A DNA stretch of 64,000 nucleotides. Origin: Artocarpus heterophyllus. Its lineage: Eukaryota > Streptophyta > Magnoliopsida > Rosales > Moraceae. Below the pieces are notes generated by a model that was not told the DNA's origin, searched no databases, and saw only the letters and a program-made list of their open reading frames with translations. The stretch covers positions 13,454,034 to 13,518,033 of the forward strand of contig CM046348.1 in assembly GCA_025403435.1 (NCBI GenBank), given 5' to 3'. Of this stretch, positions 19,431-28,716 are shown piece by piece (the stretch's first letter is position 1; the number at the start of each line of letters is the position of its first letter). The position numbers and the translations under genes are program-made.

Positions 19431-19503
19431 TTATTTAATGGAGTTTTCATTGTGACACCCGTTATTCCCCTAAGGGTATTAAGGTAATTAGATTAATTTT
19501 TAG

Positions 19504-19520
19504 TATATATATATATAAAA
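19504..19520 (+). promoter_or_regulatory. TATA box of the 5' LTR
   Basis: TATATATATATATAAAA lies about 55 bp into the LTR, upstream of a pyrimidine-rich CT tract that could hold the transcription start. The same motif is present in the 3' LTR near 26256. The use is inferred. Confidence 0.5.
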
Positions 19521-20473
19521 AAAAAAATCAAATCAGAAAATTGAGAGAAACTCGAGACTTTCTCTCTCCTCTTTCTCTCTCTAGAATTTTCTCTCTTTCT
19601 CCTCAAATCTCGTTTGAGATTCCGGCGTTATTTTTCGACACCTCCCATACCAGTGGGAAGCTCTCGTTGAGCTGAGTCCAACGAGGTGTCGTGCCACCCA
19701 AAACACCGCCGGAGGAGGGCTCACGCGCCGCCCAAAGTGGCGGTGAAACCCATATTTTCCCGACGTCGTTTCTCTGCCGTCCGACCACCAATTTACGTGA
19801 TTTTGGTGTCTATGGACTCAGTGTGAGGAGAGGAACAAGATGGTACCAATTTCCCAGCTCAATTCTGGCTGGAACAGCTTTGCCGGAGCTGCCCCGTCGC
19901 CGCCGTCGGAGCCGCCGCATATGGCAGCGGTGTGGCACACCGCCGGTGCCAAAATGATCAGAGGGAGACGGCGAGCAAGACCCCTCGGTCAATTGCTCCA
20001 TTCCGCCGCCCCTCGCCGGAGAACGAAGACGCCCGCCACCGTAGCCGTGGGTGAGGTTGGGTTGGCCATTTTAGGCCGTTTTGTGCCAAATTGAAGGCAC
20101 AAACATCTTCAGAGGACCGAGAGGAAGAAATTCGATACCTCAATTGCACGAAATGATGGCCGGAGGACGGAGAACGGCATCTCCGTCGTGCACCGCCGTG
20201 GAGCTAGTGGAGCCGCCGTTCCACGCAATGTTGAGCTGCCCCACCATAGGGGAAATACTCAGAGGAGGTCGGGGAACAATTCCCCCACCTCAATTTCACG
20301 GTATCTCCGCCGGAGATAGGAGATCGGAGCCGCCGGTTGTGGCCGTGAATTCCGTCTTCGATTTGCTATGTTAGAGGTCGAATTGGGTGAAATTGACCCC
20401 GCCATTGGACTCAGAAGGGTCGAATTAGGGGGGGTAGGCTCGAGCTCAGCCCTCAACGGAGCCAACCGCCGCC

Positions 20474-20521
20474 GGTCAACGGCCGGTCAACGGTGGTCAA
20501 CGCCGGTCAACGGCCGGTCAA
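20474..20521 (-). promoter_or_regulatory. array of five W-box cores in the 5' LTR
   Basis: GGTCAA (reverse complement TTGACC, the WRKY W-box core) starts at 20474, 20485, 20495, 20505 and 20516, spaced 10-11 bp, one DNA turn. The 3' LTR has only three (27238, 27248, 27258), which accounts for the 22-bp length difference. WRKY binding is inferred from the motif. Confidence 0.5.
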
Positions 20522-21980
20522 AGGCCAAAATGGGATTTTGTGATCCGGACCTCCGATCGAAGATCCGAGACAGCCTCCTGACTCGTTTCAATGCTCTGGA
20601 TGCAATGGTGACCTCCGTTCGAGCAAATTCCACTCCGATGAAAATCATCCGGTACTAACTGCACGTGAATCGAGGCGATTCAAACAGCAGTATCGGAGTC
20701 CAGAATGACATTTTCAAGAATGTATGATCTTCAGGAAGCATTCCTAGCCATTCATAGTAGCTCGAGGAGCACTACAGAGGATGCTTCGTAGATACAGCGA
20801 GATACAACTGGATCTGTTTTGCTTGGAGTTCAAGATCAAGGGAGTATGGAGCTAACGTTAATTGATTCCAGGATTAAGAGACTGTTGATAAGCTTGAAAG
20901 GTAGGGATTCTATTTCTCATCTTTTGTGAGGTTTTTATAGAATTAAAATTGATTGTTTTGCCGCAATATATATATATCTATGTTGAACTGATATTATATG
21001 TGTATCACATATGAAACTATGACATGGACTCGTCTTGTATTGTACGGCGAGGAACATAATGAATTGACTCATGTTATAAATTGAGAAGCATGGTTAGAAA
21101 AATTAACTCTATTAATAATGATTTAATATAGAGAAATTGTGAGACATGAAAAGGGCGACGGTTACGTCCTTGGGCATGAATACCCTAAAAGGTAAAATAG
21201 GGGGAAGGTGATGACGCTTCCTTGGGTTGAAAGTCCCAGAACACACTGTACAGGAATTGATTTGGTGAGGACTCGGGGCTTGATGTCCCCTCACCGGAAC
21301 ACCCTTGGAATGTTTATAGGGTGATCAAGTGCGCCCATTTGGGTTTCGATGAGTTGAGTGATACTCAATTTAACAGGGATACCTAGGAACAATGATGATT
21401 GGTAATATTTGTATAAATGTGTAATTATGACACTTGGTAATGATTAACTACGGTATCCATAAGATGTGATCATAATAAATCTCATAATCTGGAATATGAT
21501 GTGACTTACTAACCATGCAGATTTTAATGTGGTAATGATAAAAACCTAAAGGTGAGTAATGGCTTTCTCTACTGAGCATAGTGTTACTCATTCCCTTTTG
21601 TTTATATCTTTTCAGGACTCACTAAGTGTGAGGTGGCTACGAGAAATATAATTGAGGAAATGATGTAGCTATATTACATTGGGACTGCTTCAATCGTTGA
21701 GAATGTTCTTCATGATAATGTAAGCATCAATTGTTACTTTCTGTGACTGTATTATAATGTGTTGAGGGTTAAAATGATGATGACAACAGTTTATATTATT
21801 AAATTTAAGGTGCTACATTAAAACTGTGGTTTATTTATCGTTTATATTTTTATTTTTGAGTTGAGAGTTTTCATTTAAGTCCCGGGCAAATTTTATTTTT
21901 AAGGTTTTACTTTTATTATTTATTTTTATTTTATCTCATTAAAAACTGTTAACCCCCATATAGGGGCGTTACAGAATTTT

Positions 21981-26163: not shown

Positions 26164-26185
26164 GAAATTTCGAGGACGAAATTTC
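26164..26185 (+). other. perfect 9-bp hairpin before the polypurine tract
   Basis: GAAATTTCG, loop AGGA, CGAAATTTC forms a perfect stem four bases before the purine tract. The GAGGACGAA motif just before the PPT is common in Ty3/gypsy elements of the Del/Tekay type. Confidence 0.7.
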
Positions 26186-26188
26186 TTT

Positions 26189-26202
26189 AAGGGGGGTAGA
26201 GC
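26189..26202 (+). promoter_or_regulatory. polypurine tract
   Basis: AAGGGGGGTAGAGC abuts the 3' LTR start (TGTGACACCC at 26203), the expected place for the plus-strand primer of reverse transcription. Confidence 0.85.
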
Positions 26203-28716
26203 TGTGACACCCGTTATTCCCCTAAGGGTATTAAGGTAATTAGATTAATTTTTAGTATATATATATATAAAAAAAAAAAATCAAATCAGAAAATTGAGAG
26301 AAACTCGAGACTTTCTCTCTCCTCTTTCTCTCTCTAGAATTTTCTCTCTTTCTCCTCAAATCTCGTTTGAGATTCCGGCGTTATTTTTCGACACCTCCCA
26401 TACCAGTGGGAAGCTCTCGTTGAGCTGAGTCCAACGAGATGTCGTGCCACCCAAAACACCGCCGGAGGAGGGCTCACGCGCCGCCCAAAGTGGCGGTGAA
26501 ACCCATATTTTCCTGACGTCGTTTCTCTGCCGTCCGACCACCAATTTACGTGATTTTGGTGTCTATGGACTCAGTGTGAGGAGAGGAACAAGATGGTACC
26601 AATTTCCCAGCTCAATTCTGGCTGGAACAGCTTCGCCGGAGCTGCCCCGTCGCCGCCGTGGAGCTGCCGTCGGAGCCGCCGCATATGGCAGCGGTGTGGC
26701 ACACCGCCGGTGCCAAAATGATCAGAGGGCGACGGCGAGCAAGACCCCTCGGTCAATTGCTCCATTCCGTCGCCCCTCGCCGGAGAACGAAGACGCCCGC
26801 CACCGTCGCCGTGGGTGAGGTTGGGTTGGCCATTTTAGGCCGTTTTGTGCCAAATTGAAGGCACAAACATCTTCAGAGGACCGAGAGGAAGAAATTCGAT
26901 ACCTCAATTGCACGAAATGATGGCCGGAGGACGGAGAACGGCATCTCCGTCGTGCACCGCCGTGGAGCTAGTGGAGCCGCCGTTCCACGCAATGTTGAGC
27001 TGCCCCACCATAGGGGAAATACTCAGAGGAGGTCGGGGAACAATTCCCCCACCTCAATTTCACGGTATCTCCGCCGGAGATAGGAGATCGGAGCCGCCGG
27101 TTGTGGCCGTGAATTCTGTCTTCGATTTGCTATGTTAGAGGTCGAATTGGGTGAAATTGACCCCGCCATTGGACTCAGAAGGGTCGAATTAGGGGGGGTA
27201 GGCTCGAGCTCAGCCCTCAACGGAGCCAACCGCCGCCGGTCAACGGTGGTCAACGTCGGTCAAAGGCCAAAATGAGATTTTGTGATCCGGACCTCCGATC
27301 GAAGATCCGAGACAGCCTCCTGACTCGTTTCGATGCTCTGGATGCAATGGTGACCTCCGTTCGAGCAAATTCCACTCTGATGAAAATCATCCGATACCGA
27401 CTGCACGCGAATCGAGACGATTCAAACAGCAGTATCGGAGTCCAGAATGACGTTTTCAAGAATGTATGATCTTCAGGAAGCATTCCTAGCCATTCATAGT
27501 CGCTCGAGGAGCACTACAGAGGATGCTTCGTAGATACAGCGAGATACAACTGGATCTGTTTTGCTTGGAGTTCAAGATCAAGGGAGTATGGAGCTAACGT
27601 TAATTGATTCCAGGATTAAGAGACTGTTGATAAGCTTGAAAGGTAGGGATTCTATTACTCATCTTTTGTGAGGTTTTTATAGAATTAAAATTGATTGTTT
27701 TGCCGCAATATATATATATCTATGTTGAACTGATATTATATGTGTATCACATATGAAACTATGACATGGACTCGTCTTGTATTGTACGGCGAGGAACATA
27801 ATGAATTGACACATGTTATAAATTGAGAAGCATGGTTAGAAAAATTAACTCTATTAATAATGATTTAATATAGAGAAATTGTGAGACATGAAAAGGGCGA
27901 CGGTTACGTCCTTGGGCATGAATACCCTAAAAGGTAAAATAAGGGGAAGGTGATGACGCTTCCTTGGGTTGAAAGTCCCAGAACACACTGTACAGGAATT
28001 GATTTGGTGAGGACTCGGGGCTTGATGTCCCCTCACCGGAACACCCTTGGAATGTTTATAGGGTGATCAAGTGCGCCCATTTGGGTTTCGATGAGTTGAG
28101 TGATACTCAATTTAACAGGGATACCTAGGAACAATGATGATTGGTAATATTTGTATAAATGTGTAATTATGACACTTGGTAATGATTAACTACGGTATCC
28201 ATAAGATGTGATCATAATAAACCTCATAATCTGGAATATGATGTGACTTACTAACCATGCAGATTTTAATGTGGTAATGATAAAAACCTAAAGGTGAGTA
28301 ATGGCTTTCTCTACTGAGCATAGTGTTGCTCATTCCCTTTTGTTTATATCTTTTCAGGACTCACTAAGTGTGAGGTGGCTACGAGAAATATAGTTGAGGA
28401 AATGATGTAGCTATATTACATTGGGACTGCTTCAATCGTTGAGAATGTTCTTCATGATAATGTAAGCATCAATTGTTACTTTCTGTGACTGTATTACAAT
28501 GTGTTGAGGGTTAAAATGATGATGACAACAGTTTATATTATTAAATTTAAGGTGCTACATTAAAACTGTGGTTTATTTATCGTTTATATTTTTTATTTTT
28601 GAGTTGAGAGTTTTCATTTAAGTCCCGGGTAAATTTTATTTTTAAGGTTTTACTTTTATTATTTATTTTTATTTTATCTCATTAAAAACTGTTAACCCCC
28701 ATATAGGGGCGTTACA
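26203..28716 (+). repeat. 3' LTR of the LOG-carrying element
   Basis: 2514 bp, near-identical to the 5' LTR. Differences include scattered substitutions, an 11-bp extra segment near 26652 and 22 bp fewer in the W-box array. It ends GGCGTTACA, followed by the target duplication TTCAT at 28717-28721. Confidence 0.95.

What the first reader, a model, noticed from the sequence alone, without database searches (positions are those of the whole stretch)
19451..28716. LTR retrotransposon without gag-pol that carries a LOG-like gene and a virus-CRP-like gene
Seen: perfect TTCAT target duplication, 2.5-kb LTRs, initiator-Met PBS, PPT, and a 4.2-kb interior with only two ORFs, both intact and neither retroviral. 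One is LOG-like (cytokinin activation family); the other resembles carlavirus/allexivirus cysteine-rich nucleic-acid-binding proteins. Inference: a trans-mobilised element has picked up a host gene and possibly a viral gene and may use them to influence the host cell, for example by favouring dividing or meristem cells. I know of no described plant LTR element with this pair.
Basis: partly seen in the sequence, partly recalled or inferred. Interest (0 to 1): 0.92.

Follow-up and report, generated by a model that had tools for sequence, protein, structure and literature searches.

The report
Retrotransposon family with virus-like counter-defence genes
A highly repeated jumping gene in a plant genome has no gene for the usual jumping machinery, so another element likely moves it, and it carries two long-conserved extra genes: one related to plant-virus proteins and predicted to weaken the plant's RNA-silencing defence, the other descended from a hormone-activating enzyme but likely no longer working as one.

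Summary
In detail: an intact-ended LTR element with only two genes, a virus-CRP-like ORF1 and a LOG-like ORF2. It is not a one-off capture. A 30-base interior tag occurs 3,232 times in the 985-Mb source genome. In 19 copies (from the best-ranked matches) the LTR pairs differ by 0-0.30%, so some jumped very recently. A diverged sister cassette on another contig has both ORFs intact, in the same order and strand; between the cassettes dN/dS is about 0.17 (ORF1) and 0.26 (ORF2), so the pair is old and both genes were maintained. Among present copies ORF1 is strongly constrained (pN/pS 0.14), ORF2 weakly (0.58). ORF2 has the LOG fold but lacks the catalytic Arg and differs at all five prenyl-pocket positions, so cytokinin activation is unlikely; all 34 copies examined keep a C-terminal LxLxL (EAR-like) tail. 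ORF1's family has 855 database members; one lies behind a Ty3/gypsy integrase, and tested members pass Pfam cut-offs for viral CRPs, some of which suppress RNA silencing. LOG domains in Citrus and Populus Ty3/gypsy elements were already in print; my searches found no report of the CRP gene or the pair. No gag-pol partner was found. The silencing-suppressor role is inferred.

The parts
19446..19450 (.). 5' copy of the target-site duplication TTCAT
19451..21973 (+). 5' LTR (2523 nt; U3 module type A)
   Evidence: self-comparison; module comparison
21981..21992 (+). primer-binding site TGGTATCAGAGC (Met tRNA type; the tRNA assignment is recalled)
   Evidence: same letters in 20 of 21 copies printed (L038 has one change)
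21993..23431 (+). non-coding leader, no gag ORF
   Evidence: no sense ATG ORF of 80 aa
23432..23953 (+). ORF1, 173 aa, virus-CRP-like (Carla_C4/Viral_NABP family), Cys83/86/91/95
23954..24596 (+). non-coding spacer; holds the 30-base tag (24067-24096) used to count copies
24597..25247 (+). ORF2, 216 aa, LOG-like with altered active site and C-terminal IDLNLHL
25248..26188 (+). non-coding 3' interior; its end translates as NFEDEISLRGV, a likely remnant of a chromovirus pol end (recalled resemblance)
26189..26196 (+). polypurine tract
26203..28716 (+). 3' LTR (2514 nt)
28717..28721 (.). 3' copy of the target-site duplication TTCAT

Best explanation
This is one copy of a very abundant, recently active LTR retrotransposon family with no gag-pol gene, presumably mobilised in trans, that carries an old pair of accessory genes: ORF1, predicted to act like a viral cysteine-rich protein as an RNA-silencing suppressor or nucleic-acid binder, and ORF2, a LOG-fold protein that has likely lost cytokinin activation. 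Shown: the anatomy; 3,232 tag matches; near-identical LTR pairs in 19 copies; strong constraint on ORF1; long-term constraint on both ORFs against a sister cassette; loss of the LOG catalytic Arg and of the prenyl-pocket residues. Inferred: transcripts from the LTR are packaged by gag and reverse-transcribed by pol of another, probably chromovirus-type, element. Inferred: ORF1 protein blunts small-RNA silencing of the family and so helps copies jump, which would explain why the copies that spread keep it intact. Inferred: ORF2 once served as a LOG-type enzyme in an ancestral element and is now either a passenger losing constraint or a binding protein that works through its LxLxL tail, for example by recruiting a TOPLESS-type co-repressor.
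For: Copy number: 3,232 tag matches, 0 for the reversed control. Youth: LTR pairs 0-0.30% apart in 19 of 20 copies fetched from the ORF2-ranked list, the 20th being truncated; perfect 5-bp duplications in 17 of these 19, all 17 different. ORF1 constraint: pN/pS 0.143 in 12 copies picked without regard to ORFs (bootstrap over copies 0.09-0.20); 18 nonsynonymous, 24 synonymous and 1 stop difference against 28.9, 12.1 and 1.9 expected with the same mutation spectrum, P 0.0003; 28 of 32 copies intact and the four Cys unchanged in 32 of 32. Deep constraint: sister cassette on C17, dN/dS 0.17 (0.09-0.27) for ORF1 and 0.26 (0.16-0.38) for ORF2. Viral homology: 7 of 7 tested relatives pass a Pfam gathering score for Viral_NABP or Carla_C4. 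Viral CRPs with silencing-suppressor activity: chrysanthemum virus B p12 (PMC7588395, abstract and opening text) and CYVCV CRP (PMC12172455, abstract). LOG fold: best PDB match 2a33, TM 0.85 by target and 0.69 by query. Active-site losses.
Against: No expression or small-RNA data were available. ORF1's own score is below both Pfam cut-offs, and its structure model is poor (mean pLDDT 53.9), so its function rests on homology. Constraint on ORF1 would also be expected if it were a packaging or nucleocapsid-like protein. No gag-pol element sharing the PBS or PPT junction was found, so the helper is unknown. The dated copies come from the best ORF2 matches and lean young; the window's own LTRs differ by 0.99%. 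ORF2 has no stop in the 20 copies chosen on ORF2, is open in 22 of 24 copies not so chosen, and shows fewer stops than expected (1 against 4.8, P 0.03), so 'passenger' may be too strong. The deep dN/dS rests on one sister copy with synonymous sites near saturation (pS 0.52-0.55).
Confidence: 0.55

Rival explanations
1. ORF1 is a nucleic-acid chaperone or packaging factor: it binds the element's RNA and helps foreign gag particles take it up, instead of suppressing silencing.
For: ORF1 has a Cys4 motif and a KRRAR stretch; the element has no gag ORF; constraint is strong.
Against: A CRP-like ORF also lies behind a Ty3/gypsy integrase (L001), an element that would have its own gag (the contig does not reach it); the viral relatives with known activity act on silencing and transcription.
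Confidence: 0.25
2. ORF2 is a LOG-derived binding protein that recruits a TOPLESS-type co-repressor through its C-terminal LxLxL (EAR-like) tail and so changes hormone or defence gene expression in the host cell.
For: The tail is in 86 of 116 LOG-like relatives examined and in 34 of 34 copies, and is kept as LDLNLNL in the sister cassette. Change is concentrated in codons 41-108 (pN 0.34) against 0.11 in 109-190.
Against: Short tail, so invariance among young copies says little; the EAR reading is recalled, not tested; recent constraint on ORF2 is weak; on the tree the tail needs five gains or losses.
Confidence: 0.2
3. ORF2 is an active cytokinin-activating LOG, promoting dividing cells where new copies can be inherited.
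For: LOG fold, intact PGGLGTLEE motif and both Glu.
Against: Catalytic Arg is Asn; Met, His, Lys, Glu and Trp of the prenyl pocket are Ile, Pro, Phe, Ile and Gly. In a bacterial LOG, alanine at the AMP-binding and catalytic residues, one Ser excepted, almost abolished activity (passage). Longest end branch of the tree, 1.34 against a median of 0.12.
Confidence: 0.07
4. Both ORFs are inert cargo carried by a family that spreads only because of its LTRs.
For: ORF2 differences among 12 copies match the neutral expectation; 4 of 32 copies have a broken ORF1.
Against: ORF1 P 0.0003; dN/dS 0.17 and 0.26 against the sister cassette.
Confidence: 0.05

Closest known systems
LOG (YgdH) domains reported inside Citrus and Populus Ty3/gypsy elements (PMC9289625, citing Steinbauerova 2011)
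   Same: A LOG-family domain as an extra part of plant Ty3/gypsy elements
   Different: Those consensus sequences were gathered around a reverse transcriptase; here there is no gag-pol ORF, the LOG is beside a CRP gene and has lost its active-site Arg. Seen: section 12 and passages. Steinbauerova 2011 not seen.
Extra ORFs (eORFs/aORFs) of plant LTR retrotransposons (PMC7264820, PMC6317226)
   Same: Sense-strand accessory gene kept in the copies of a family
   Different: Neumann 2019 counted eORFs of at least 250 codons only (passage), so ORF1 and ORF2 would have been missed. In what I saw of those two papers (parts 1-2 of 3, and passages) and in the listings there is no CRP-type eORF.
Cysteine-rich (NABP/CRP) proteins of carlaviruses and other flexiviruses
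   Same: Basic stretch followed by a Cys4 motif; relatives pass Pfam Viral_NABP/Carla_C4 cut-offs
   Different: About 173-185 aa with conservation along most of the length, and carried by LTR elements rather than an RNA virus
m6A demethylase-bearing Ty3/gypsy elements of Phalaenopsis orchids (PMC9289625)
   Same: An extra domain whose kind also occurs in plant RNA viruses (recalled; viral AlkB is in that paper's reference list), in a Ty3/gypsy element
   Different: Different gene, in elements found by their reverse transcriptase
Non-autonomous large LTR elements (LARD type; recalled)
   Same: LTRs, PBS, PPT, no gag-pol ORF, high copy number
   Different: Two conserved coding genes inside; LTR pairs at most 0.30% apart in the 19 copies dated

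Membership tests
Non-autonomous LTR retrotransposon | LTR pair with TG...CA ends, target duplication, PBS and PPT | tested here: met
Non-autonomous LTR retrotransposon | No gag-pol ORF | tested here: met
   interior not scanned with retroviral profiles
Non-autonomous LTR retrotransposon | Many copies with independent insertions | tested here: met
   perfect 5-bp duplications in 17 of 19 copies, all different
Non-autonomous LTR retrotransposon | An autonomous helper sharing its ends | tested here: inconclusive
   9 of 9 fetched exceptions carry family sequence next to the junction; two of the nine are cut by runs of N
Chromovirus (Tekay-type) Ty3/gypsy | Met-tRNA PBS (most chromoviruses and Ty1/copia, not other Ty3/gypsy; PMC6317226 passage) | tested here: met
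   also fits Ty1/copia
Chromovirus (Tekay-type) Ty3/gypsy | RT/INT phylogeny and chromodomain | not testable with these tools
   no pol in the element; only a short end remnant by recall
Cytokinin-activating LOG enzymes | LOG fold and PGGxGTxxE motif | tested here: met
Cytokinin-activating LOG enzymes | Catalytic Arg (Arg99 in CgLOG) | tested here: not met
   Asn99; unchanged in the 32 copies that cover it
Cytokinin-activating LOG enzymes | Prenyl pocket Met, His, Lys, Glu, Trp | tested here: not met
   Ile96, Pro97, Phe100, Ile125, Gly129
Cytokinin-activating LOG enzymes | NCBIfam equivalog NF058542 score of 300 bits | tested here: not met
   85.6 bits; the model serves bacterial and archaeal annotation, and no plant LOG was run as a control
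Viral CRP/NABP (PF05515, PF01623) | Pfam gathering score for ORF1 itself | tested here: not met
   16.3 against 23 and 13 against 20.9
Viral CRP/NABP (PF05515, PF01623) | Homology through its own protein family | tested here: met
   Carla_C4 in 13 of 16 and Viral_NABP in 11 of 16 at E 0.01; 7 of 7 chosen relatives pass at least one gathering score
Viral CRP/NABP (PF05515, PF01623) | Silencing suppression | not testable with these tools
   needs a bench assay

The most novel reading that the evidence does not exclude
Plant LTR retrotransposons carry a mobile counter-defence cassette, a viral-type silencing suppressor plus a LOG-derived, TOPLESS-recruiting pseudoenzyme, that has moved between unrelated element lineages. 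Here the cassette drove a non-autonomous family to thousands of copies.
Probability: 0.25. Interest if true: 0.92.

Novelty: new variant of a known kind. Interest (0 to 1): 0.74.

Why it matters
Plant transposable elements are mostly studied as targets of RNA silencing. A family with some 3,200 tagged copies that keeps a gene related to viral silencing suppressors under strong selection makes transposon counter-defence directly testable in a leaf assay. The CRP-like family (855 proteins in one search) falls below the 250-codon cut-off of a major survey and may have been overlooked in many plant genomes. The LOG-like gene gives a series of copies, young, older and sister, in which an enzyme loses its active site but keeps its fold and tail.

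Tried and rejected
Rejected: 'one chance capture', because of 3,232 tag matches and a sister cassette. Rejected: 'both genes equally functional today', because ORF2 ratios among copies are close to neutral. Rejected as evidence: the 150 of 150 identical ORF2 proteins, because only 150 of 6,120 candidates were scored. Led nowhere: viral-contig scans with ORF1 and ORF2 families (none confirmed); the ORF1 structure (too poor for a fold search); naming the plant species (not done; no name came with the genome). Helper search by shared PBS and PPT junctions gave family members only. An ORF1 protein search of the own genome did not complete.
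Full report
What is there. The window holds one LTR element at 19451-28716 with a perfect TTCAT duplication. The LTRs are 2523 and 2514 nt and differ at 25 of 2536 aligned columns. The interior has a Met-type PBS, a polypurine tract and two sense ORFs of 80 aa or more; no gag-pol ORF is present. I did not scan the interior with retroviral profiles. The interior's 3' end translates as NFEDEISLRGV, which I recall as resembling the end of chromovirus polyproteins. 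Met-tRNA PBSs occur in most chromoviruses and in Ty1/copia, not in other Ty3/gypsy lineages (PMC6317226, passages only). So the ends are probably chromovirus-type; this could not be tested by pol phylogeny.

How many copies. The window lies in a 985-Mb assembly of 334 contigs. A 30-base tag from the non-coding spacer, allowing three mismatches, matches 3,232 places (1,568 forward, 1,664 reverse) and the reversed control none. A 46-base tag over the PPT/3' LTR junction matches 2,776 places, and a 43-base tag over the U5/PBS junction 3,779. If most copies are full length this is about 27-30 Mb or 3% of the assembly (my estimate). ORF2 as a protein query gave 150 of 150 scored matches at 100% identity without stops, but only 150 of 6,120 candidates were scored, so this is the top of a ranking and not a measure of conservation.

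How young. Twenty copies chosen from that ranking were fetched, so they lean young. All 20 have ORF1 before ORF2 on the same strand. In 19 an LTR pair could be paired, with 0-6 mismatches (0-0.30%); L032 is truncated and has part of another copy next to it. Of these 19, 17 have a perfect 5-bp target duplication, all 17 different; L039 has one mismatch and L040 no match. The window's own copy is older (0.99%).

LTR modules. The last 1.14 kb of the LTR is shared by the types compared (about 97-99% identity), but the U3 part is not. Type A (window) has no blastn match to types B and C beyond the first 59-74 bases; C is B lacking about 380 bases; D is partly related to A (7 LTRs compared pairwise, 20 LTRs aligned). 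The same gene pair therefore sits behind different U3 (promoter) regions.

Selection on the two genes. ORF1 was first compared in 21 copies, the window and 20 chosen only on ORF2: pN/pS 0.170, two with a stop. Then copies were taken from the 100 places listed (all exact tags, contigs C1 and C2) without regard to ORFs: 12 for both ORFs, 12 more for ORF2 alone. In the first 12, ORF1 has pN/pS 0.143 (bootstrap over copies 0.09-0.20) and ORF2 0.577 (0.46-0.94). With the observed mutation spectrum, ORF1 shows 18 nonsynonymous, 24 synonymous and 1 stop difference against 28.9, 12.1 and 1.9 expected (P 0.0003). ORF2 shows 47, 22 and 0 against 47.4, 19.1 and 2.5 (P 0.50 for nonsynonymous, 0.07 for stops). 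With 24 copies ORF2 shows 86, 50 and 1 against 93.9, 38.4 and 4.8 (P 0.066 for nonsynonymous, 0.032 for stops). ORF1 is intact in 28 of 32 copies (3 with a stop, 1 with a one-base deletion; 20 of the 32 were chosen on ORF2), and Cys83, 86, 91 and 95 are unchanged in 32 of 32. ORF2 is open in 22 of the 24 copies not chosen on it; two carry deletions.

A sister cassette. Searching the own genome with the CRP protein of contig L001 (150 of 5,265 candidates scored) gave its best match at C17:24140591-24141115, minus strand. Searching with a LOG-like protein from another source, P0065 (150 of 5,839 scored), gave its best match at C17:24139196-24139822, minus strand, about 770 bases further on. Both ORFs are intact there; I could not fetch the surroundings, so its LTRs are unseen. 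ORF1 is 75% and ORF2 62.5% identical in protein to the window's; dN/dS is 0.17 (codon bootstrap 0.09-0.27) and 0.26 (0.16-0.38), with dS near 0.9-1.0, so synonymous sites are near saturation. The pair is therefore old, and both genes were kept by selection for a long time. In ORF2, change is concentrated in codons 41-108 (pN 0.34) rather than 109-190 (0.11). The sister LOG still has GLMG and Arg where the window family has KMMV and Asn. The more diverged window-family copies L045, L051, L070 and L073 (89-95% to ORF2) already lack both, so the loss is older than the recent burst.

What ORF2 is. It has the LOG fold (AlphaFold2 mean pLDDT 76.4; best PDB match 2a33) and the PGGLGTLEE motif. In CgLOG the proposed catalytic residues are Arg99 and Glu122, and the prenyl pocket is Met96, His97, Lys100, Glu125 and Trp129; alanine at the AMP-binding and catalytic residues, Ser19 excepted, almost abolished activity (PMC4979012, passages). 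By the gap-free alignment to 2a33, read by eye, ORF2 has Asn99, Ile96, Pro97, Phe100, Ile125 and Gly129, and keeps Glu121 and Glu122. In a tree of 32 LOG-like proteins its branch is 1.34 against a median of 0.12. A C-terminal LxLxL is present in 86 of 116 LOG-like hits of 190-245 aa (from the 120 listed of 5,291; 4 dropped for length) and as PIDLNLHL in 34 of 34 copies, two of them partial and one with an upstream deletion, read in the window's frame. Musa LOG1-like proteins lack it. That LxLxL is an EAR repression motif is recalled, not tested. In the tree the tail needs five changes, so it is not one clean clade.

What ORF1 is. It belongs to a family of proteins of about 173-185 aa. One-sequence search gave 15 relatives; the alignment search gave 855 at E 0.001, of which 120 were listed; the nine organism names shown are plants (Xanthoceras, Populus, Acer, Hibiscus, Rhamnella, Orobanche), and most rows have no name, so viral members are not excluded. 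Seven of 7 chosen relatives pass at least one Pfam gathering score for Viral_NABP or Carla_C4. One relative lies directly behind a Ty3/gypsy-type integrase frame (rve and Integrase_H2C2) and before a polypurine-like stretch, on a plant-like contig filed under a bacterial genome (L001); I take it for the Athila/Tat group by recall. So the CRP gene seems to sit in at least two kinds of LTR element. A LOG-like (P0065) and a CRP-like (P0149) protein from other sources are both listed from a contig of 8,723 nt. An equal length above 5 kb would arise by chance in about 2.5% of trials, but equal lengths between 1.3 and 100 kb overall were not in excess (1 seen, 1.24 expected), and the 5-kb limit was set after seeing it. 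It is a lead only.

Mechanism. Viral CRPs with known activity act on silencing and transcription: chrysanthemum virus B p12 is a transcriptional activator and a suppressor of RNA silencing (PMC7588395, abstract and opening), and CYVCV CRP suppresses local silencing (PMC12172455, abstract). The most likely reading is that ORF1 blunts silencing of the family or otherwise binds nucleic acid for it, and that ORF2 is a LOG-derived pseudoenzyme, either decaying or working through its tail. Mobilisation in trans is inferred. No helper was found. On contig C1, 49 of 52 exact PPT junctions have an exact tag at the expected distance, and the three others, fetched, are family members. Of 54 exact PBS junctions on C1, 49 have the tag; three of the other five were fetched and are family members, one belongs to an element already seen at its PPT end, and one lies beside an ORF2 match. 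Three further PBS junctions on C2 were family members too. Two of the nine fetched pieces are broken off by runs of N.

Prior work. LOG (YgdH) domains in Citrus and Populus Ty3/gypsy elements are in print (PMC9289625, section 12). Extra ORFs are well known (PMC7264820, parts 1-2 of 3 read; PMC6317226, passages). I found no report of a CRP-type extra ORF or of the CRP-LOG pair in the searches, which cover open-licence papers only and of which I mostly saw listings.

Verdict. A real, recently active, abundant family with an ancient two-gene cargo. The CRP-like gene is the part under clear selection today, the LOG-like gene has probably lost its enzyme function, and the counter-defence role is the best but untested reading.

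Noticed in passing
G000:C9:16537152-16564376: Five ORF2 copies on one strand at about 6.65-kb spacing, which looks like a tandem array of LTR-interior units.
   Followed up: no
own genome, e.g. C4:19352385-19352993, C28:21183746-21184354: A second set of single-frame LOG-like ORFs (about 51-55% to P0065, mostly aligned from residue 8 to 198 or 213), apparently another multi-copy LOG-carrying family.
   Followed up: partly
L022-L041, LTRs: Unrelated or partly related U3 modules in front of the same gene pair.
   Followed up: partly
L001: Plant-like retrotransposon contig filed inside a Candidatus Nomurabacteria genome record.
   Followed up: partly
window 38135-42604, minus strand: Ty1/copia element with a 1338-aa gag-pol frame, followed after a stop by a 150-aa frame.
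   Followed up: no
window 14584-15564; 52291-53073; 61646-62965: Host-type genes: dihydrodipicolinate synthase, a bVLRF1/ankyrin protein, and a fasciclin-domain protein.
   Followed up: no
window 29610-29738: Two 63-base direct repeats 66 bases apart.
   Followed up: no
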